Below, one piece after another: positions 51,724-62,017 of a DNA stretch of 64,000 bases. Source of the stretch: Clostridia bacterium (GTDB taxonomy: Bacteria; Bacillota; Clostridia; Christensenellales; Aristaeellaceae). The stretch is from assembly GCA_017404985.1 (NCBI GenBank), contig JAFRBK010000048.1, positions 57,034-121,033 of the forward strand, read 5' to 3'. The translations under genes were made by a program, and so were the position numbers. The notes below the pieces were generated by a model that worked only from the letters and a program-made list of their open reading frames with translations, ran no database searches and was not told the DNA's origin. Each line of letters begins with the position of its first letter. Positions within the stretch are counted from its first letter, which is position 1.

Positions 51724-51755
51724 TTTGAAAAAGCATGCGGCGAGGAGTAGATTTT

Positions 51756-52919
51756 ATGAAAACATTGATCGAACTGTATGACGATTATCCCATCAAAAAT
51801 GTACTGGCTACGCTGACCTTCTCCCCGGATGAATGCATTCTGGTTTGCCCGTCCGTAATTTCCGAAGATAAGGAAATGAAGCGTTCATTGCGTGATTTCT
51901 ATAAGTATCGGGGTTCCAAAGTCAAACTGACCTTCGTTCCCGTGAGTCTGAACGACGCGCTCAAAACCGAGCGTGTGCTGCGGGAAGTGCTGGATTCACA
52001 TCCTGACTGCGCCATTAATATCTCCGGCGGAACAGATGCTTCGCTTTTTGCCACCGGCGAAGTCACCGGTGATACCCCTGTTTTTACTTATAGTTCCAAA
52101 AAGGAAACCTTTTTTGAAGTCAAAAACGCGCCGTTTGCCCGTGGCATGGTTCCGGACGTACATCTGGATGTAGCATCCTCCCTGATGGTGGCAGGCGGCA
52201 CACTGCTCCCCGGCCGTGCGGATAACGCCGAACTGGGCAACCGAACGGAGCAGATTGACAGGCTTTTTAACGTGTTCACTAAATATCGCCGGATCTGGAA
52301 CGCGCAGATCAGCTATATTCAGAAAGTTTCCTCCTCCGAAGCCGGCAATCTCCTCGCGGAAGGCGCGCTCACAGAGAAAGCGGGCGGCAGAGTCGTCACC
52401 GCCGATACCCAGCTCTTCCAGGCGCTGGCGGATGCGGAGCTGATCCAGGACCTGGAGGTTGCGGAGGATAGCCTGCGGTTCCGTTTCCCTGATGAGACCG
52501 TCCGCTTCTGGCTTCGGGATATCGGTGCCGTGCTGGAACTGCAGGTGTACCGGGCCTGCACGGCTTCAGGATACTTTGATGATGTCGTGCTCAGCGCCGT
52601 TGTGAATTGGCAGAGCGGTGAGCTCAAAAGCGACAGTGTCAGCAACGAGATTGATGTCATGGCCGTCCAGGGCGTCAAGCCTGTTTTCATCAGCTGCAAA
52701 ACCAGCGAAATCCACACGGAAGCCCTCAACGAACTCTCCATCCTGCGGCTCCGCTTCGGCGGCTACTTCTCCCGGGCCATTCTCGTCACGTCAGGGGTAG
52801 CATCCAAAAACCGAGCCGCCATGAGAAACCGTGCGGCCAAGCTGGGAATTGAACTCATTGAGTGGGAAGATTTGAAACTGGACAAGCTGATCAACCGTCT
52901 CCGCGATCAGGATACCTGA
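51756..52919 (+). CDS. Stand-alone CARF-domain PD-(D/E)xK nuclease (Card1/DUF1887-like)
   Basis: This 387-residue protein has the two-domain build of Card1/Can2-type CRISPR ancillary nucleases. The N-terminal CARF-like Rossmann domain (~1-150) contains ILVCPSVIS and the ligand-loop motif INISGGTDAS. A linker/wHTH region spans ~170-250. The restriction-endonuclease-like domain (~255-387) has E261 in IGAVLELQVY, D300 in SNEIDVMAV and K315 in VFISCKTS, so the catalytic triad is intact. In known members cyclic oligoadenylate binding switches on DNA/RNA cleavage. No CRISPR array or cas gene lies within the window, so its trigger here is unknown. The ATG at 51756 has GAGGAG 8 bases upstream. An ATG seven codons earlier lacks one. 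Confidence 0.85.
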   Translation: MKTLIELYDDYPIKNVLATLTFSPDECILVCPSVISEDKEMKRSLRDFYKYRGSKVKLTFVPVSLNDALKTERVLREVLDSHPDCAINISGGTDASLFATGEVTGDTPVFTYSSKKETFFEVKNAPFARGMVPDVHLDVASSLMVAGGTLLPGRADNAELGNRTEQIDRLFNVFTKYRRIWNAQISYIQKVSSSEAGNLLAEGALTEKAGGRVVTADTQLFQALADAELIQDLEVAEDSLRFRFPDETVRFWLRDIGAVLELQVYRACTASGYFDDVVLSAVVNWQSGELKSDSVSNEIDVMAVQGVKPVFISCKTSEIHTEALNELSILRLRFGGYFSRAILVTSGVASKNRAAMRNRAAKLGIELIEWEDLKLDKLINRLRDQDT

Positions 52920-53412: not shown

Positions 53413-53790
53413 TCAGCCATCTTTTCGGGAATCTGGATACTGTGTTGAATAACTCAGAATCTGGACTGTTCCATTTTCCGCGCTGATCGGAAGCACATTT
53501 TTAAACGGCAGTGAGACCTCAAATGTTTCCGCTTTTCCGGAAACAGCAATCTTTTCCCCGTCAATCACGAGAATACCGTTTCCGGCCGCGGTCACAGTAA
53601 TTGTTACCTTACCATCCATATTCCGGCTTTCATCAAAAATGTGTATATAGCCTGGAACCCCTGTATACAGAGAATTATCGTCTAGGCCAAACATCATGGT
53701 ATCCACCCAACGTTCAGATGGTTGAATCCGGGCAATAGTAAAATGGCCATTTTTCGTTTTTTCCACCTCGACGGACTTATTCAATTCCAT
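53413..53790 (-). CDS. Hypothetical beta-rich protein
   Basis: I do not recognise this 125-residue protein. It begins MELNKSVEVEK and is dominated by alternating polar/hydrophobic strands. The segment from VTITVTAAGNGILVIDG to EVSLPFKNVLP looks like an Ig- or carbohydrate-binding-type sandwich. It has no signal peptide, no Cys and no catalytic motif. The ATG at 53790 has AGGA 9 bases upstream and overlaps the end of the decayed frame upstream by 14 bases. Base use is more A/T-rich than the left part of the window. It could be the surviving 3' gene of the degraded unit. Confidence 0.55.
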   Translation of the reverse strand: MELNKSVEVEKTKNGHFTIARIQPSERWVDTMMFGLDDNSLYTGVPGYIHIFDESRNMDGKVTITVTAAGNGILVIDGEKIAVSGKAETFEVSLPFKNVLPISAENGTVQILSYSTQYPDSRKDG

Positions 53791-54561
53791 ACAGTTCATC
53801 CTGCTCGTCGCCCTCGTTGCGTCCTTCCTGGTAGTTCAGGTTTCCAAGGATGATTGAAATGTTGGTCAGGGAAATATCCTCCAGAATGATCGGCGTATTG
53901 ATAACGGTCCCGCGCCCGCATTCACTGTAAATCTGGAGGTTCGCCGGCATGATCTCCCTTTTCGGTATATTCATAGGCGGCGTTCACTGTATTGTTGGCG
54001 TCCCCTTCGCCGCTGTCGCGGGTAAGGTGGCAGAATACATCGCTCTGCTTCCCGATTGTCTCAAGCGTTCCGCCTAACGTGGAATTGGTGCAGTTCTATA
54101 GGCCTACCAGCATATCCGAGGTAATTCGAGCATCAATATTGCAGTCTACAGCCCCCTTCGAAGTCCCATTGACACCGTAAGTATTTCCTTCATGGTATAT
54201 TTTCCCGCTTAGCTGATTATGCCGGCTGACGATGCTGTTTGAAGCGATGCCGCTTACGCTCGTATTGGCAATCGGCTCTCCATTCTGTTGGACGGTTGCC
54301 TGTACGTTGCCCTGGCATCTGATACAGTCTTCCATCATACTGATGACCCCGTTTGCCTGGCCCGTATATGTCAAGTTCACAGTACCGGTATAACTGCAGA
54401 GGCTGCACTTCCACAATGCGCGCTGGGAGAAATTGTCCGCCTCGACATGAATATTTACGTTCGCATCGGAATTACAGGCCCCGGCCAAAGCGGAAAAGCC
54501 TGTTCCGCATCCCGGTTCTCCATAAATAGTTACAAGATCACTTCCCTTCTGAGCGGCCAAA

Positions 54562-54585
54562 GTATGTTTCTGTTGTGAAACATAC
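54562..54585. promoter_or_regulatory. Inverted repeat overlapping the ZorA-like gene promoter
   Basis: Perfect 9-base arms GTATGTTTC / GAAACATAC around a 6-base centre. The right half covers the -35 region of the promoter at 54573-54601, the usual place for a repressor operator. Confidence 0.55.
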
Positions 54586-54601
54586 AATATTTTGTTAAAA
54601 T
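54573..54601 (+). promoter_or_regulatory. Promoter of the ZorA/ZorB-like operon
   Basis: TTGTGA, a 17-base spacer and TAAAAT on the plus strand, about 38 bases before the ATG at 54640. Confidence 0.6.
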
Positions 54602-54639
54602 AAGATATCATTGATGACAATGCAGGGGGCTGTAACCGC

Positions 54640-56130
54640 ATGAAGCAAATTACTTCCATTCCGCTGCCTGATCTGTTGGTCTATGTCGCCATTGCCGTGG
54701 TGACACTGATTGGTATTCTCAAATGTATCCTTCCAGTGGCAGATACGACCCGGGGACTGAACCGGGCGGTTCAAAAGCTGCAGGGAAGCACGGACAGAAA
54801 TGTCTGGCATGATGATTTGTTCGTCGGGAAACGCCTGAAAGTCACCTGGCAGAAATTCCTTCAGACAGAAGACGAAATGGAGAAACGCGGATTGTCCTGT
54901 CCCGTGGAGGATTATATCAACACCCGGACGGTTACCAAGATCCCGGGAAACGCATCCCTCAGCGAGCTGATCCCCTCACTCCTGACTTCCCTGGGCATTC
55001 TGGGGACGTTCATCGGCCTGACCAGAGGCTTGACGGGGTTGGACATGACGGACGCAAACACCCTGATGAACGGTATTCCGATTTTACTGGACGGCATGAA
55101 GGCAGCGTTTGTTACCTCATTGGCAGGTATTTCCTGTTCACTGGTCTTTTCTATGACCAACCGGATTATACAGGGAAACAGTTATCGGGCGATTGACCAG
55201 TTTATTCTGATCTTCAGCGAGAATACGGAGCATAAGGCACTGGACATGGATTATCAGATCGTACTGCAAGGCAATGACCGGAACCAGATGCTGAGCTCGG
55301 TGACAACAGGACTGAGCAAAACAATCTCCGGCGTAGTGCACGATGTAGTTTCAGAGGCTGTGACTCCTGTTACTGAAGCCATGGAGCAATATATGCGGGC
55401 AGCAACGGAACAGCAGACGGAAAGCCTTCAGGCAACGGTTGCTTCCTTTGTAAAGAGGATGGGAGATACCTTCGGAAATGAATTTGCGACCCTCGGAAAA
55501 ACGATTACAGAGATTAATCGGGAGATGAGCATCAGTGAAAAAACCTTGAGGCAGTCCACAGTAGCGGCAGAACAAATCCAGGAGCAGACCCTCCGGCTGA
55601 AGGCGACGACGGATGAAATGGTGCAAAGCTATGACATCTTCCTGAAGAGCGTCCAGATCCGTTCGGCGGAGGACGAGAAATTTGCCTCGGCCTCTCTGAT
55701 GGCCCTGGACGCGCTGAAGCAAAGCGCGGATGAACAGGGAGTCCTGCTGCAGAAGATGGACACGGCTCAGCAGGAACTGAACAGCGCGATTCATGCGTAC
55801 CAGCAGGTCAGCACCCGGTGGGCGGAGCAGGCGGCAAATGCGCAGCAGACCGCAGCAACGGACCTGGCAGGTGCCGGCGAAACGATCCGGATGGCCGGCG
55901 AGAAACTGGCTGTCTCCTATGAAAAGTTCGTTTCTTCAACCTCCAGTAGTCTGAACAGCACCCTCCGGACCTTCTCAGATTCCATGATGACGCTGACCGC
56001 GCTGATCAACCAGAAGACCGCGGAAAGTGAGATCAGGGAAGCCTCCACTGTGGATCAGCTGGGTGAAATCCAGCGTCTGCTGGCACGGCTTGTACAAAGC
56101 GTTCAGCCGAAAGGAGACTCCGAGGCATGA
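54640..56130 (+). CDS. ZorA-like MotA/TolQ/ExbB-type stator with long cytosolic tail
   Basis: This 496-residue membrane protein forms the pentamer-type part of a proton- or sodium-driven motor. TM1 spans ~11-33. A cytosolic segment follows (34-105). The MotA/ExbB core has TM2 (~108-128, LIPSLLTSLGILGTFIGLTRGL) and TM3 (~150-176, DGMKAAFVTSLAGISCSLVFS). Residues ~180-496 form a long helical, Gln/Glu/Ala-rich tail like the ZorA tail of Zorya anti-phage systems, not seen in flagellar MotA. The ATG at 54640 has AGGGGG 9 bases upstream. Its stop overlaps the next start as ATGA. No flagellar or Tol genes are nearby. Zorya kinship is inference from architecture. Confidence 0.82.
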   Translation: MKQITSIPLPDLLVYVAIAVVTLIGILKCILPVADTTRGLNRAVQKLQGSTDRNVWHDDLFVGKRLKVTWQKFLQTEDEMEKRGLSCPVEDYINTRTVTKIPGNASLSELIPSLLTSLGILGTFIGLTRGLTGLDMTDANTLMNGIPILLDGMKAAFVTSLAGISCSLVFSMTNRIIQGNSYRAIDQFILIFSENTEHKALDMDYQIVLQGNDRNQMLSSVTTGLSKTISGVVHDVVSEAVTPVTEAMEQYMRAATEQQTESLQATVASFVKRMGDTFGNEFATLGKTITEINREMSISEKTLRQSTVAAEQIQEQTLRLKATTDEMVQSYDIFLKSVQIRSAEDEKFASASLMALDALKQSADEQGVLLQKMDTAQQELNSAIHAYQQVSTRWAEQAANAQQTAATDLAGAGETIRMAGEKLAVSYEKFVSSTSSSLNSTLRTFSDSMMTLTALINQKTAESEIREASTVDQLGEIQRLLARLVQSVQPKGDSEA

Positions 56131-58226
56131 GACGGGACAAGTACGAGGATGAGCGCAGCAGCGGGGGAAACGGCGGCAGCAGTTGGATCAGCTATTCGGA
56201 TATGATGGCGTCGCTGTTGCTGGTGTTTCTCCTGATGCTCTGCGTGAGCCTTTTGAAATATTTTACCATGCCGAAGGAAGAAGAGCTTCAACAGCGTCAA
56301 AGTATAGAAGAACAGTTAAAAGAGATTGAGATGCGGGAAGCGGACCTGGCAGAGCGCGAGGAAAAACTGGCGAAAGCTTTGGCCGAGCTGGAAAAAAAAC
56401 GGGCAGAGCTGGAGACAGCGCAGGAACAACTGGCAAAGGAACAGACGGAACTGCAGGCAACGAAGGAACAGATGGCAAAGGACCAGGCGGAACTGCAGAA
56501 AGCGCAGGAACAACTGGAAAAGGACCAGGCGGCGCTGCAGAAAGCGCAGGAACAACTGGAAAAGGACCAGGCGGCGCTGCAGAAGGCACAGGAACAGCTG
56601 GAAAAGGACCAGGCGGCGCTGCAGAAAGCGCAGGAACAGCTGGCAAAAGAACAGGCAGAGCTGCAGAAGGCACAAAAACAGTTGGAAAAGGACCAGGCGG
56701 AACTGCAGAAAGCGCAGGAACAGCTGGCAAAAGAACAGGCGGAACTGCAGGCAGCGCAGGAACAGCTGGCAAAAGAACAGGCGGAACTGCAGGCAGCGCA
56801 GGAACAACTGGCAAAGGGCCAGGCGGAACTGCAGAAAGCGCAGGAACAACTGGAAAAGGACCAGGCGGCGCTGCAAACAGAACAGGAACAGCTGGCAAAG
56901 GACCAGGAAGAACTGCAGGCGGCAAAGGAACAACTGGCAAAGGATCAGGCTGCGCTGCAAACAGAACAGGAACAACTGCAAAAAGATCAACAGGCTCTGG
57001 AAAAAGAGAAAGAGGAACTGGAGGAAGAGCGTGCATCTCTTGAAACAGAACAAGCGCAGTTGAAAAAGGAGCAGGCCGAGCTGACAAAAGGTCAGGATCA
57101 GCTGCGCCTGGAACAGGAAGCTTTCCGGGCGGAAAAGGAAGCGGAAGCAACTCCGGCCCCTGAACCTGAATCGGAATGGGCGCGGGAAGTACAGCGGGAA
57201 ATTGAGAAACTGCAGGCGATACTGGATCAGTATTCTCTGCGAAGCCGCATTATTACCAGCCAGTACAGCGCCTTTGAAAATTCCGGGCTGAACATTATAA
57301 TCAACCAGGATACGGGCGATATCACGACGCCTAACTTCATTCTGTTTGACGCGGGCAGCAGCGAACTCAGCAACGAGGGGAAACGGTTTCTGGATGCCTT
57401 TATTCCGCTGTATCTGGAGGTGCTGATGCGGCCGGAATATGAAAGCGATATCAGTGAGGTGATCATCGAAGGGCATACGGACAGCTACTTTTCCACTTGT
57501 GTGGAGCTGAGCATGCAGCGGGCGTCTCGGGTGATGGCCTACAGCATGCAGATACCGACGCTGACAGAAGCTCAGCGAACATATCTGACCGAGCGGGCAA
57601 CGTTTATCGGACGGGGGTTTACGGATCCCGTTTTCGACAAGGACGGACAGATCAACTGGGAAGCGAGTCGACGGGTTGAGATCAAATTCCAGATCAGGGA
57701 TAACCCTCTTCTGGCAGAAACGGAGCTCGTCGGAGAGCTGATCAACAGGCTGAACGAGGCTAAGATTCCCGCATCCATGAATCCGGAAACAGGGCGTATC
57801 CTGCCGGACGGTATCCTTTTCTTCGAAACGGGGGAAGATACGCTGACCAAAGAAGGAAAAATGTTTATCCGGGAGTTCCTGTCGGTTTATCTGGATGTAC
57901 TGATGGAGCCCAGATACCAGAATCAGGTGGGAATGCTAATCATTGAGGGAACTGCTGACCGACTGCTTCCGGATGCGGATCGTCTGGAGCTCAGCCAGCG
58001 AAGAGCCACCCATGTTATGGAATACTGTATGCAGCTGGATCTGACAGCGGTGCAGCTGGCCTATTTACAGAAGACACTTGTCACGGCGGGAAGAACGATC
58101 GCGGATTCCGCAGATGGAACAGACGAACGGACGGAAGGCAATGCTGGCGAACAGGTAACATTCAGATTCCATCTGAAGAACACGGACTCCCTGTCCGAAT
58201 TGAGAACTTTACTGCAGGACAACTGA
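56127..58226 (+). CDS. ZorB-like MotB/OmpA protein with coiled-coil repeat array and two OmpA domains
   Basis: This 699-residue partner of the stator has one membrane helix near the N-terminus (~24-46), with the MotB-type plug/proton Asp D25 in ISYSDMMASLLLVFLL. A continuous coiled coil (~50-345) follows, including seventeen 14-residue units of the form AQEQLxKxQAxLQK. A first OmpA/MotB peptidoglycan-binding domain (~370-524) shows ILFDAGSSELSNEG, IIEGHTDS and EASRRVEIKF. A second, degenerate copy (~545-690) shows ILFFETGEDTLTKEG and IIEGTADR. Usual ZorB and MotB proteins are ~250-300 residues with one OmpA domain and no such stalk. The start is coupled to the upstream gene by a 4-base overlap. 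Confidence 0.82.
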   Translation: MRRDKYEDERSSGGNGGSSWISYSDMMASLLLVFLLMLCVSLLKYFTMPKEEELQQRQSIEEQLKEIEMREADLAEREEKLAKALAELEKKRAELETAQEQLAKEQTELQATKEQMAKDQAELQKAQEQLEKDQAALQKAQEQLEKDQAALQKAQEQLEKDQAALQKAQEQLAKEQAELQKAQKQLEKDQAELQKAQEQLAKEQAELQAAQEQLAKEQAELQAAQEQLAKGQAELQKAQEQLEKDQAALQTEQEQLAKDQEELQAAKEQLAKDQAALQTEQEQLQKDQQALEKEKEELEEERASLETEQAQLKKEQAELTKGQDQLRLEQEAFRAEKEAEATPAPEPESEWAREVQREIEKLQAILDQYSLRSRIITSQYSAFENSGLNIIINQDTGDITTPNFILFDAGSSELSNEGKRFLDAFIPLYLEVLMRPEYESDISEVIIEGHTDSYFSTCVELSMQRASRVMAYSMQIPTLTEAQRTYLTERATFIGRGFTDPVFDKDGQINWEASRRVEIKFQIRDNPLLAETELVGELINRLNEAKIPASMNPETGRILPDGILFFETGEDTLTKEGKMFIREFLSVYLDVLMEPRYQNQVGMLIIEGTADRLLPDADRLELSQRRATHVMEYCMQLDLTAVQLAYLQKTLVTAGRTIADSADGTDERTEGNAGEQVTFRFHLKNTDSLSELRTLLQDN
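56415..57128 (+). repeat. Seventeen tandem 42-bp repeats inside the ZorB-like gene
   Basis: The coiled-coil region is built from 42-base units encoding 14 residues (two heptads). Units 3, 4, 5 and 11 encode identical KAQEQLEKDQAALQ peptides with nearly identical DNA, while the flanking units are more diverged. This points to recent in-frame expansion and likely length variation between strains. Confidence 0.85.
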
Positions 58227-58239
58227 AAAAAGTCTGCAA

Positions 58240-58555: not shown

Positions 58556-58600
58556 TGGTGAGCCCGGCGGGATTCGAACCCACGACCTTTTGATTCGTAG
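58556..58600 (-). other. 3' half of tRNA-Arg(ACG): attachment-site remnant of an integrated element
   Basis: Read on the minus strand the sequence from CTACGAA (anticodon loop, ACG) through GGTCGTGGGTTCGAATCCC to CGGGCTC-A-CCA is a perfect tRNA-Arg 3' half with encoded CCA. The 5' half is absent: no GAGCCCG acceptor strand, no D-arm, and the anticodon 5' strand does not pair. Such 3' fragments are left by tyrosine-recombinase elements that insert at tRNA ends. Because the full tRNA remains on the far side, the element lies at higher coordinates. Confidence 0.75.
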
Positions 58601-59485: not shown

Positions 59486-59639
59486 TGTGTGCATTATACT
59501 CACAGAAACTCTGTACCCGGCTCTGAAGAAAACGATCACCTACCCTGCGTATGGGCAAATACTCAGCCGAGAGTCCATTCTCCGGAGAACCAGGCCCCTA
59601 CTCTCAAAAAAATGAAAAGAAATGAAAGGAGCACAACCC

Positions 59640-60383
59640 ATGAATACGGCATGTGAGCAGATCAGCTTTATCAATGAAGAACAGAAACAGAATGAACGTA
59701 AGAATACTCTCCGGCTACGTGAACGCCTGATGACAGAGCACGGCTTTGAATCCTTTGATGATACAGAAGTTCTGTCCACCGTTCTCTCTTACGCGAAGGG
59801 AGCCAGGGACACCGACTTGCTGGTGGCACGGCTCTTCGATACCTTCGGCAGCCTGAAGGCAATTCTTGAAGCCCGTCCCGAACAGCTTCTGAGCGTTGAC
59901 GGCATGACAATCTCCCGGGCAAGCATGATTTCTCTTGTTGTGCCCCTTACCCGTGTTTGGCATCGTTGTGTAATGTCTGCCCCGAGAAAGATCGGCAACA
60001 GCCGGGAGGCGGAGAATTACTGTTTGAGCCTGCTGGCCGGAGAACGTCTGGAAAACTTCTACGTCATCGCGCTAAACGCGAAGTGCAATGTACTCGGGCA
60101 GCGGCGAATCAGCACTGGTAGCCTGTCTGAAGTATCGGCCTATCCCCGCCTTGTGATGGAGACCGCGTTGAATTACAATGCCCACTCTGTACTTCTTTGT
60201 CACAATCATCCTGGTGGAACCTGCGCGCCATCGCCTGAAGATATCAGCTCGACGCTTCAGCTTCAGCGGCTGCTGAACGGTGTCGGGATACTGGTTTTGG
60301 ACCACATCGTTGTCGCTGGAGACAGAACCTACAGCATGATTCAGCATGGAGATATCGACTACAGAACAAGAAGAACAGCCTAA
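59640..60383 (+). CDS. radC: RadC-family JAB/JAMM metalloprotein
   Basis: This 247-residue protein has an N-terminal helix-hairpin-helix (~25-100) and a C-terminal JAB domain with the complete zinc motif HNHPGGTCAPSPED (H-x-H-x10-D) preceded by GSLSEVSAYPR. Despite the name it is not a proven repair protein. Copies on integrative elements and phages, including next to antirestriction genes as here, are common and are thought to act on DNA or in transfer. The ATG at 59640 has AAGGAG 8 bases upstream. Confidence 0.92.
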   Translation: MNTACEQISFINEEQKQNERKNTLRLRERLMTEHGFESFDDTEVLSTVLSYAKGARDTDLLVARLFDTFGSLKAILEARPEQLLSVDGMTISRASMISLVVPLTRVWHRCVMSAPRKIGNSREAENYCLSLLAGERLENFYVIALNAKCNVLGQRRISTGSLSEVSAYPRLVMETALNYNAHSVLLCHNHPGGTCAPSPEDISSTLQLQRLLNGVGILVLDHIVVAGDRTYSMIQHGDIDYRTRRTA

Positions 60384-60485
60384 TTTTTTTTCTCGATCCC
60401 TTGAAAACTGCTGCCGGTGCGAGTCTTGCAAGACAAAATGATAAACGGTATAATATTTACAAAGAATGATGTAGGAGGTGTTAGT

Positions 60486-60728
60486 GTGAGTACGCTGGAA
60501 GCAACGGTATCCATGCTGGAAGCAATGCCTGAAGAAGCACGGCTTAAAGTTTATCAATATGCGCGCACAGTGTTTTCATCAAATCGTCCTGCTAACCCAT
60601 TTACGCCGGTAAGCAAGGAGACAGTTCTTGCTGATCTGAAGGCTTCCTCTGATGAATTCGATCGCGGGGAAGGCATGGATGCCAAAGAAGCAATCCGAGA
60701 AATGAGGCGTCAGCGTGGATTTGTTTAA
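60486..60728 (+). CDS. Antitoxin-like small protein of a RelBE/ParDE-type pair
   Basis: This 80-residue protein starts with GTG after AGGAGG (7 bases). It is helical and acidic, with a C-terminal stretch LKASSDEFDRGEGMDAKEAIREMRRQRGF that matches toxin-binding tails of RelB/PHD-like antitoxins. The N-terminal part (LEAMPEEARLKVYQYAR) fits a DUF2281-type or similar DNA-binding domain. The toxin frame begins inside its last codons (14-base overlap), the normal antitoxin-first order. Confidence 0.72.
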   Translation: MSTLEATVSMLEAMPEEARLKVYQYARTVFSSNRPANPFTPVSKETVLADLKASSDEFDRGEGMDAKEAIREMRRQRGFV

Positions 60729-61044
60729 GGTAGACATATCCCCGACAGCGAGAAGGCAGCTTGATCGTTATGTGGATTATATTCAATTCACACTGCTGAA
60801 TGACCAGGCGGCGGATGCTGTTATGGATGATGCGCTGGAAACAATTGAGGATCTCGAAAAAACTGCTGGGAGCCTGGGTTTCTGTACAGATCCTGATCTG
60901 TAAGCTTTGGGGTACCGCAAGATCCTTTTTCGAAGACATGATTATGTCATGATCTATGACATTGACGGACAGACAGCCAGAATCAAGGGAGTTTATCACC
61001 TGCTTCAGGATTATGAGAACCTGTTCATGAAACAGATTCGATGA
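60715..61044 (+). pseudogene. RelE/ParE-family toxin interrupted by a nonsense codon
   Basis: The frame starts with GTG inside the antitoxin end and encodes DISPTARRQLDRYVDYI and ALETIEDLEKTAGSLG, then meets TAA at 60901-60903. The same frame continues with ALGYRKILFRRHDYVMIYDI to IKGVYHLLQDYENLF and a final TGA at 61044. In intact relatives this position reads L-K-ALGYRKI, so a single AAA-to-TAA change is the simplest cause. The toxin would lack its catalytic C-terminal strands. The antitoxin is still intact. Confidence 0.8.
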
Positions 61045-61150
61045 ATTGAGTTCTTAACCGTTTCTTCGTGAATGGCGGGGCAGTCTCAATGTATAAGTGT
61101 TTTGTGCGAGATCCTTCGGGATCTCTTTTTTATGTGAAAGGAGAAGAGAT

Positions 61151-62017
61151 ATGAGTTTCGATCTTTACCAGCAAATCACAGACAGAATCATCGCAGAACT
61201 GGAAAAAGGCACTGTGCCCTGGCGTAAACCTTGGAGTTGTTCGTCCGGAGCGATCAGCAGAGCAACCGGTAAACCGTACAGTGTCCTGAATCAGCTCCTG
61301 CTACCGCAATCAGGCGAATACGTCACATTTCGACAGGCCATCGAAGAAGGCCACCCCGTCAAAAAGGGTGAGAAAGCTTCGATGGTCTATTTTTTTAAGT
61401 TTATCGACGCTGAAGACGATGAAACCGGCGAGAAGAAACAAATCCCGCTGCTGAAATACTTTTCTGTCTTCCACATCAGCCAGTGTCCCGGCATGAAACC
61501 GCGCTTCACTTCTTCTGTTTCAACCCACAGTGACCTTCAGCCGGACAAAAAAGCGGAGGAGTTTCTTCATTATTATATATCTCGTTCTGGAGTGACTCTG
61601 AAGAGGCAACAGAGTGATAAAGCTTATTACTCCCCTGCGCTGGACACGATTGTGGTCCCAGAAATAAACCAGTTCGCCGATCTAGCCGAGTACTACTCGA
61701 CTGTGTTTCATGAAGCAGTTCATTCAACCGGCCATCCGTCCAGGCTTAGCCGGATCACAGACGTTGCCCAATTTGGTTCTGAGTCTTATTCGCGAGAGGA
61801 GCTGATTGCAGAATTGGGAGCAAGTTATCTCGTTAACGCCGCCGGACTGGAAACTCCTTCATCCTTCGGAAACTCAGCCGCATACATCAAAAACTGGTTG
61901 TCAGCCCTAAAGAATGACAAACGGTTGATTGTCAGCGCCGCCGGAAAAGCTGAAAAGGCTGTAAACTTTATTCTTGGCAAGAAAGAAGGTGGGCAAACTG
62001 CCGATAACGCGGAGTGA
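61151..62017 (+). CDS. ArdC-like antirestriction protein with zincin metallopeptidase domain
   Basis: This 288-residue protein of mobile elements has an N-terminal ssDNA-binding ArdC domain (~1-115; VPWRKPW, GKPYSVLNQLLL, VKKGEKASMVYFFKF) and a C-terminal gluzincin-like domain with VFHEAVHSTGH (HExxH) and EELIAELGASYL supplying the third ligand. ArdC proteins protect incoming DNA against restriction during transfer. The ATG at 61151 follows AAAGGAG. It sits two genes after radC, a common pairing on integrative elements. Length is normal for the family. Confidence 0.9.
   Translation: MSFDLYQQITDRIIAELEKGTVPWRKPWSCSSGAISRATGKPYSVLNQLLLPQSGEYVTFRQAIEEGHPVKKGEKASMVYFFKFIDAEDDETGEKKQIPLLKYFSVFHISQCPGMKPRFTSSVSTHSDLQPDKKAEEFLHYYISRSGVTLKRQQSDKAYYSPALDTIVVPEINQFADLAEYYSTVFHEAVHSTGHPSRLSRITDVAQFGSESYSREELIAELGASYLVNAAGLETPSSFGNSAAYIKNWLSALKNDKRLIVSAAGKAEKAVNFILGKKEGGQTADNAE

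What the first reader, a model, noticed from the sequence alone, without database searches (positions are those of the whole stretch)
54640..58226. Two-gene membrane motor module related to Zorya but without zorC/D/E
The pair has a MotA/ExbB-core protein with a ~310-residue cytosolic tail and, overlapping by 4 bases, a MotB/OmpA partner with the conserved membrane Asp. The long tail on the stator is the feature that separates ZorA of the Zorya anti-phage system from flagellar and Tol motors. There are no flagellar, chemotaxis or Tol genes around, and a CARF nuclease and an integration site flank it. The expected effectors ZorC/ZorD or ZorE are absent on both sides, so it may be a minimal or novel motor system whose effector is elsewhere or is the motor itself.
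Basis: partly seen in the sequence, partly recalled or inferred. Interest (0 to 1): 0.78.

Follow-up and report, generated by a model that had tools for sequence, protein, structure and literature searches.

The report
Long-stalk ZorAB-like motor without effectors
Two genes encode what looks like an ion-driven membrane motor related to the anti-phage Zorya motor but without its DNA-attacking partners; it is a rare, probably transferred spare copy, with a stretched stalk and a doubled cell-wall anchor, of a motor that nearly every sampled member of this family of uncultured gut Clostridia carries.

Summary
The pair is real. A (496 aa) and B (699 aa) overlap by 4 bases. ZorA and ZorB are their best-scoring solved relatives, but curated Zorya cut-offs are not met and ZorC/D/E are not beside it. 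It is not a one-off. A homologue of A is carried by 189 of 200 sampled genomes of the host's family, often followed by a conserved third gene C (found in 132 of 150 genomes), a small protein with one predicted membrane helix. FliG was found in 0 of 100 of these genomes. Elsewhere in the phylum 10 of 397 sampled genomes hold a relative, and all 10 have Zorya effectors beside it. So an effector-free ZorAB-type motor appears core to this family. The window pair is a rare second copy (4 of 229 genomes). It lacks C, carries a 14-residue-repeat stalk and two OmpA domains, and is shared as a 3.7-kb DNA block with different flanks. Synonymous divergence (A: 0.24 against 1.13 for the core copy) indicates horizontal transfer. 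Most likely it is a wall-anchored rotary motor, an offshoot of the core motor; a defence role is possible but untested.

The parts
54562..54639 (+). 5' leader / possible promoter region, left end of the shared block
   Evidence: DNA similarity to G033 begins at 54562 and to G556 at 54584; nothing to the left is shared in the stretches compared. No promoter scan was run.
54640..56130 (+). A: MotA/TolQ/ExbB-type subunit, 496 aa, three predicted membrane helices (residues about 12-30, 107-128, 155-173), cytosolic tail of about 302 residues
   Evidence: Pfam MotA_ExbB, PADLOC ZorA2 1.3e-21 and ZorA1 1.2e-19, hydropathy, tail length.
56127..58226 (+). B: MotB/OmpA-type partner, 699 aa, overlaps A by 4 bases
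   Evidence: Pfam OmpA and MotB_plug; PADLOC ZorB1 2.3e-73.
56199..56201 (+). Codon of the membrane Asp (B residue 25, WISYSD)
   Evidence: D25 invariant in 14 of 14 and 38 of 38 aligned B proteins; WISYSD in 75 of 75 core B proteins (the narrower motif matched 64 of 75).
56402..56982 (+). 42-base tandem repeat, 13.9 copies, coding 14-residue repeats of the stalk
   Evidence: Tandem Repeats Finder, 83% matches; 14-residue autocorrelation 0.56.
57342..57647 (+). First OmpA-like domain (B residues 406-507)
   Evidence: Pfam OmpA best stretch; PADLOC ZorB1 147.2 bits for residues 353-525.
57720..58214 (+). Second OmpA-like domain (within B residues 532-696), not seen in the core copies aligned
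   Evidence: PADLOC ZorB1 100.6 bits; 34% identical to the first domain; of 200 family genomes only G000 and G556 match over both domains at E up to 1e-30.

Best explanation
The pair encodes an ion-driven rotary motor of the 5:2 type: five A subunits around a B dimer, ions passing at B Asp25 against a Ser/Thr ring of A, and A turning its coiled tail bundle in the cytosol (all inferred from homology to ZorAB). It is an accessory paralogue of a ZorAB-type motor that is core to this family of uncultured Clostridia and in which the Zorya effectors were not found. In the core version, A-B is usually accompanied by C, a small protein with a predicted membrane helix and a predicted extracytoplasmic part, so the motor most likely acts on or senses the cell envelope rather than driving a nuclease. 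In the window version C is missing, the B stalk is about twice as long as in the core and about three to four times as long as in Zorya, and the peptidoglycan-binding-type domain is doubled. The likely effect is a longer reach and firmer or two-point anchoring in the wall. The two genes move between genomes as a self-contained unit. Shown: the homologies, family-wide distribution, absence of the searched effectors where searched, stalk and domain changes, and discordant divergence. Inferred: 5:2 assembly, rotation, wall binding and envelope function.
For: A homologue in 189 of 200 family genomes (47 of 50 genera; 99 of 103 good-quality genomes; 186 of the 189 at E up to 2e-34); the close core copy in 32 of 37 genomes of the genus. 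C in 132 of 150; A-B-C adjacent in 71 of 76 loci, displaced in 1, contig ends too early in 4; in 20 loci picked as likely unlinked, C stands without A or B nearby, so co-occurrence is not only linkage. PDB profile hits for A: 6 ZorA sequences and no MotA/ExbB/TolQ among 15 at E up to 0.1; for B, ZorB ranks first, above MotB and MotS. FliG in 0 of 100. ZorC and ZorE in 0 of 100 stretches of this family, window included, and ZorD-like helicase in 2 of 100, against 9 of 9 type I control loci with ZorC and ZorD and 1 of 1 type II with ZorE, some of them the query sources. EH_Signature in 0 of 100 genomes, ZorE in 0 of 1, own genome. Asp to first EGHT: 110-128 residues in 7 Zorya B proteins, 198-219 in 5 family core-side proteins, 376-423 in 3 window-type. 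dS G000-G033: window type 0.24 (A), 0.30 (B); core 1.13, 1.06. Shared DNA limited to 54562-58230. A+B tree: family motors one clade 100/100, window type inside it 100/99.
Against: C is absent in 18 of 150 genomes, including all six sampled members of genus g253, and present in 3 without a detected A, so C is not strictly tied to the motor. Patchy, transferred occurrence of the window pair is what one expects of a defence gene. The EH_Signature search rang in none of its 14 control genomes, although the model does detect real ZorC. Two family stretches (L146, L152) hold a ZorD-like helicase match, whose place relative to the motor I did not work out. AU test against 'all core copies form one clade' gives p 0.071, and an A-only tree leaves the window type's place open. 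The second OmpA domain is the least constrained part of B (dN/dS 0.28-0.59).
Confidence: 0.6

Rival explanations
1. Motor-only or effector-in-trans phage defence: the mobile long-stalk copy is an immune device that senses wall damage by phage and acts through ion leakage, or through an effector encoded elsewhere.
For: Best-scoring relatives are ZorAB. The window copy is rare (4 of 229 genomes), apparently exchanged between genomes and self-contained; in the window it lies near a CARF nuclease.
Against: In the Mariano paper (section 6, part 1, read) deletion of each component abolished protection for Zorya I and, against T7, for Zorya II. No effector travels with the pair. The CARF gene is outside the shared block. 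The core relatives behave as a family-wide trait.
Confidence: 0.22
2. Degenerate Zorya: a former complete Zorya that lost its effectors and is decaying.
For: The family motors sit on the type I side of the A+B tree (100/99 from type II).
Against: Both reading frames are intact and under purifying selection: dN/dS 0.14-0.22 for A and 0.21-0.38 for B. Lack of effectors beside the motor is general in the family stretches examined, not local. Nesting inside type I is not significant (AU p 0.17 and 0.26).
Confidence: 0.06
3. A motor that exports, assembles or moves a surface polymer or adhesin, as related motors do in gliding or type 9 secretion.
For: C has a predicted membrane helix and a predicted extracytoplasmic part. 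A related but separate MotA-EAL fusion lies near exopolysaccharide-type genes in two genomes of the genus.
Against: No secretion or polysaccharide gene stood out as conserved beside A-B-C among the neighbour clusters of 76 loci (clusters judged by eye, not by family search).
Confidence: 0.12

Closest known systems
Zorya type I motor ZorA1-ZorB1 (e.g. the Shewanella structure 8VVN)
   Same: A with a long cytosolic tail; B with one membrane helix bearing the ion-binding-type Asp plus an OmpA-like domain; sequence profiles match; tree places the family motors on the type I side.
   Different: No ZorC or ZorD beside it. Near-universal in the family rather than patchy. A third gene C in most core versions. 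Asp-to-EGHT distance 198-219 residues in the core and 376-423 in the window type, against 110-128 in Zorya. Second OmpA domain in the window type.
Zorya type II (ZorA2-ZorB2-ZorE)
   Same: A and B score against ZorA2 and ZorB2 models.
   Different: No ZorE in the own genome or in 100 family stretches; separated from type II with 100/99 support; A has a longer part before the GxxGTFxG motif (119 residues against 47 and 57).
Flagellar stator MotA-MotB
   Same: MotA_ExbB and MotB_plug/OmpA domains; MotB and MotS are among the PDB hits of B, below ZorB.
   Different: FliG not found in 100 of 100 family genomes; no MotA among the PDB hits of A.
Tol/Ton motors TolQR, ExbBD
   Same: MotA/TolQ/ExbB core.
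   Different: B carries OmpA domains; no TolQ or ExbB among the PDB hits of A; the mBio 2025 survey (passages seen) could discern no OmpA homology in that group's B subunits.

Membership tests
Zorya (any type) | ZorA-like subunit with long cytosolic tail | tested here: met
   PADLOC ZorA2 1.3e-21; tail about 302 residues; but below all six NCBIfam ZorA cut-offs listed, e.g. 60.8 of 100 and 40.9 of 750 bits.
Zorya (any type) | ZorB-like subunit with membrane Asp and peptidoglycan-binding-type domain | tested here: met
   PADLOC ZorB1 2.3e-73, Asp25; below NCBIfam cut-offs, 76.7 of 400 and 54.7 of 400 bits.
Zorya type I | ZorC and ZorD in the operon | tested here: not met
   ZorC in 0 of 100 family stretches including the window, ZorD-like match in 2 of 100 (L146, L152), none in the window; the same search finds both in 9 of 9 type I control loci, some of them query sources. 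EH_Signature in 0 of 100 family genomes (its controls silent). ZorD was not searched genome-wide.
Zorya type II | ZorE in the operon | tested here: not met
   PDLC00643 in 0 of 1, own genome; control rang in E. coli. ZorE in 0 of 100 family stretches.
Zorya (any type) | Protects against phage | not testable with these tools
Zorya (any type) | Patchy, defence-like distribution | tested here: inconclusive
   Window type rare and apparently transferred (4 of 229 genomes); homologues of A nearly universal in the family (189 of 200).
Flagellar stator MotAB | Occurs with a flagellar rotor (FliG) | tested here: not met
   0 of 100 family genomes; 4 of 14 controls rang.
Tol/Ton motor | TolQ/ExbB-like A and small TolR/ExbD-like B | tested here: not met
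   B is an OmpA protein; no TolQ or ExbB among the 15 PDB hits for A.
5:2 rotary motor | A5B2 assembly driven by ion flow | not testable with these tools

The most novel reading that the evidence does not exclude
A phage-defence motor lineage was uncoupled from its nucleases and became a core envelope machine of a whole bacterial family, with a new partner C. From it arose a mobile long-stalk, double-anchored version that gauges or pulls on the wall at a distance set by the number of 14-residue repeats, used either as a wall-tension sensor or as effector-free immunity.
Probability: 0.3. Interest if true: 0.82.

Novelty: new variant of a known kind. Interest (0 to 1): 0.62.

Why it matters
ZorAB is known as the motor of a nuclease-based defence. 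A family in which nearly every sampled genome keeps such a motor while the Zorya nucleases were not found would let one ask what the motor does alone, and whether immune motors and housekeeping envelope motors interconvert. The repeat-built stalk gives a natural series of lengths (Zorya, family core, window type) with which to test how reach and peptidoglycan anchoring gate an ion-driven motor.

Tried and rejected
Window read as a complete Zorya: rejected for lack of ZorC/D/E beside it. Neighbouring CARF nuclease as the effector: rejected as outside the shared block. Conserved neighbours beyond A-B-C: nothing informative; the recurring clusters looked, by eye, metabolic, genus-level or wrong-strand ORF shadows. 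Neighbours of unlinked C: a DNA polymerase I-like gene in 9 of 20 loci (name read from the printed sequence, not from a family search), probably ordinary synteny. Identity of C: no convincing Pfam match (best 4.8e-4, a family matched by 3 of 52 members) and no PDB match. Viral contigs with A: no match. Phage records: two unverified faecal scaffolds, one a MotA-EAL fusion. First tree with MotA, ExbB and EAL fusions had very long branches and was not used for placement; a family-only A tree left the window type's place open. Papers: searches showed no description of an effector-free ZorAB-type motor core to a clostridial family. Seen: section 6 part 1 of PMC11890865, its outline (28) and a term search in it (74); found passages of PMC12505986 and PMC12694931; other papers only as listings. 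The family name Aristaeellaceae is my guess from recall and was not tested.

An earlier count said 34 of 37 genus genomes hold the core copy; the correct count is 34 of 37 with any match and 32 of 37 with the close core copy.
Full report
Observation. A has a MotA_ExbB match (2.7e-5), B an OmpA match in two stretches (8.2e-11) and a MotB_plug match. Against PADLOC, A scores best with ZorA2 and ZorA1 models (1.3e-21, 1.2e-19) and B with ZorB1 (2.3e-73). Against NCBIfam the same Zorya families come up, all below their cut-offs (A 60.8 of 100 bits at best, B 76.7 of 400). In the PDB the A profile finds six ZorA sequences and no MotA, ExbB or TolQ among 15 hits at E up to 0.1; the other nine are marginal and by name mostly coiled-coil or helical proteins. 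The B profile finds ZorB first (2.9e-19, 7e-19, 5.2e-10), then OmpA, MotB, MotS and coiled-coil proteins.

B holds a 42-base tandem repeat (13.9 copies) that codes a 14-residue-periodic stalk, and a second OmpA domain, 34% identical to the first, which scores 100.6 bits on its own with the ZorB1 model. The Asp and Arg positions D452 and R465 that are invariant in the first domain (A2 and A7) have counterparts in the second (alignment); that they bind peptidoglycan is recalled, not tested.

The motor is a family trait. The same genome has a second copy (41% identical in A) on another contig. Of 37 genomes of the genus, 34 have an A match and 32 the close core copy; the other two (G021, G028) match with a MotA-EAL type protein; of 24 genomes from 24 other families of the order, one has a weak match, 7e-6. 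Of 200 genomes of the family, 189 have a match at E up to 1e-10, 47 of 50 genera, and 99 of 103 genomes with at least 90% completeness and at most 5% contamination; three of the 189 match only at 5e-12 to 3e-16 and could be fragments or another type. In a class sample 4 of 391 match: the own genome, one more of the family, one MotA-EAL fusion and one 271-aa MotA-type protein. FliG is not found in 100 of 100 family genomes, with 4 of 14 controls ringing, so these are unlikely to be flagellar stators.

A third gene. In 71 of 76 loci with a core copy, A and B are followed directly by C, about 160 aa, with one predicted N-terminal membrane helix and a presumably extracytoplasmic rest; in one locus C is 4.1 kb away and in four the contig ends first. 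These 76 were among the loci most similar to the query alignment. C is found in 132 of 150 family genomes (46 of 50 genera) and in 5 of 391 of a class sample, two of them this family and three near threshold. In 20 loci that I picked as likely unlinked, C was found and no A or B within the stretch fetched; two of these genomes, G482 and G487, have no detected A at all. Comparing over those 150 genomes: both present 129, C only 3, A only 13, neither 5; incomplete genomes blur this. All six sampled genomes of genus g253 lack C. C has no convincing Pfam or PDB match.

Contrast with real Zorya. A phylum sample of 398 genomes gave 10 matches at E up to 1e-8 besides the own genome. All ten are Zorya by context: nine type I loci and one A-B-ZorE. 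By tblastn with nine effector queries, 9 of 9 type I control loci show ZorC and ZorD and the type II locus shows ZorE, though several of these loci are themselves query sources; with fewer queries ZorC of L200 and L207 and ZorD of L201 had not shown. The same nine queries against 100 stretches of this family, window included (some from the same genome), find no ZorC and no ZorE; a ZorD-like helicase matches in two, L146 and L152 (E down to 6e-26), and I did not work out whether these are ordinary helicases. Genome-wide, EH_Signature is in 0 of 100 family genomes (its control genomes were silent, but the model detects the ZorC of a Zorya plasmid at 217 bits, and 7 of 8 phylum ZorC proteins), ZorE in 0 of 1. 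ZorD was not searched genome-wide.

Tree. With A and B columns combined, the 15 family pairs used form one clade (100/100) on the type I side, split from type II at 100/99. They fall inside type I, but the alternative that type I is one clade is not rejected (AU p 0.17; 0.26 without the three rows left out as long). The window type is inside the family clade (a node of 8 core and 3 window-type rows, 100/99), and the alternative that all core copies form one clade is just not rejected (p 0.071). An A-only family tree leaves its place open.

The window type is a mobile offshoot. It was found in 4 of 229 family genomes (37 and 200, 8 shared): G000, G033 and G556 in one genus, and G526 in another. 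The G526 copy is a fragment on a 3-kb contig, 99% identical to G556, and may be contamination. DNA shared with G033 runs from 54562 to 58230, with G556 from 54584 to 58226, with no shared flank in the stretches compared. Between G000 and G033 dS is 0.24 (A) and 0.30 (B) for the window type, but 1.13, 1.06 and 1.93 for core A, B and C (simple Nei-Gojobori counts, the core values near saturation); G033 and G556 are closest in the core copy (A 89%) while G000 and G033 are closest in the window type (A 90.5%). This is best explained by horizontal transfer. Both copies are under purifying selection, the second OmpA domain least so (dN/dS 0.28-0.59).

Stalk length. From the membrane Asp to the first EGHT-like signature there are 110-128 residues in seven Zorya B proteins (an eighth gave no value), 198-219 in five family core-side B proteins, and 376-423 in three window-type proteins. 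If helical, the window stalk could reach some tens of nanometres; that is inference.

Mechanism. By homology to ZorAB (5:2 complex, Asp against a Ser/Thr ring, tail and peptidoglycan-binding domain required; PMC11890865 section 6) the pair should be an ion-driven motor anchored in peptidoglycan by B. T123 and S160 of A are among the invariant columns of 28 aligned sequences including three ZorA. The core version, kept through the family usually with a membrane-anchored partner, most likely serves the envelope. The window version is a longer-reach, doubly anchored, C-free derivative. Defence is the main rival for the window version, because it is rare and mobile. No structure model could be made, and nothing here was tested in cells.

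Noticed in passing
L043:9684-11231, L044:8869-10416, L167:8360-9886, L176:1017-2675: MotA_ExbB domain with an EAL (cyclic-di-GMP phosphodiesterase-type) domain in one protein; shown by Pfam for L043, L167 and L176, and inferred from tree and length for L044. In two genomes of the host's genus it lies near exopolysaccharide-type genes, beside an HD plus sugar-transferase fusion in L044. One paper search found nothing.
   Followed up: partly
L175 (Prevotella plasmid pE2-28): ZorAB-like pair in a gene row with two FtsK-type translocases, an exonuclease and a formylglycine-generating enzyme-type gene, without ZorC/D/E annotated; possible further ZorAB context.
   Followed up: no
window 51735-52919: CARF-PDDEXK (Card1-like) nuclease upstream of the pair, PADLOC 1.1e-42, Pfam Card1_endonuc 1e-8; whether the genome has a type III CRISPR system was not checked.
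   Followed up: no
window 58566-58600: Stretch that looks by eye like a tRNA 3' end (no ARAGORN tRNA; sub-threshold tmRNA match), followed by RadC and ArdC-type genes (59622-62017), perhaps the end of an integrated element just right of the pair.
   Followed up: partly
window 53413-54659, minus strand: Two ORF pieces, by eye of a secreted repetitive protein, upstream of A, without Pfam match; the shared block begins inside this region.
   Followed up: no
L146, L152: ZorD-like helicase matches (up to 111 bits) within the fetched stretch of two family motor loci, without ZorC; place relative to the motor not worked out.
   Followed up: no
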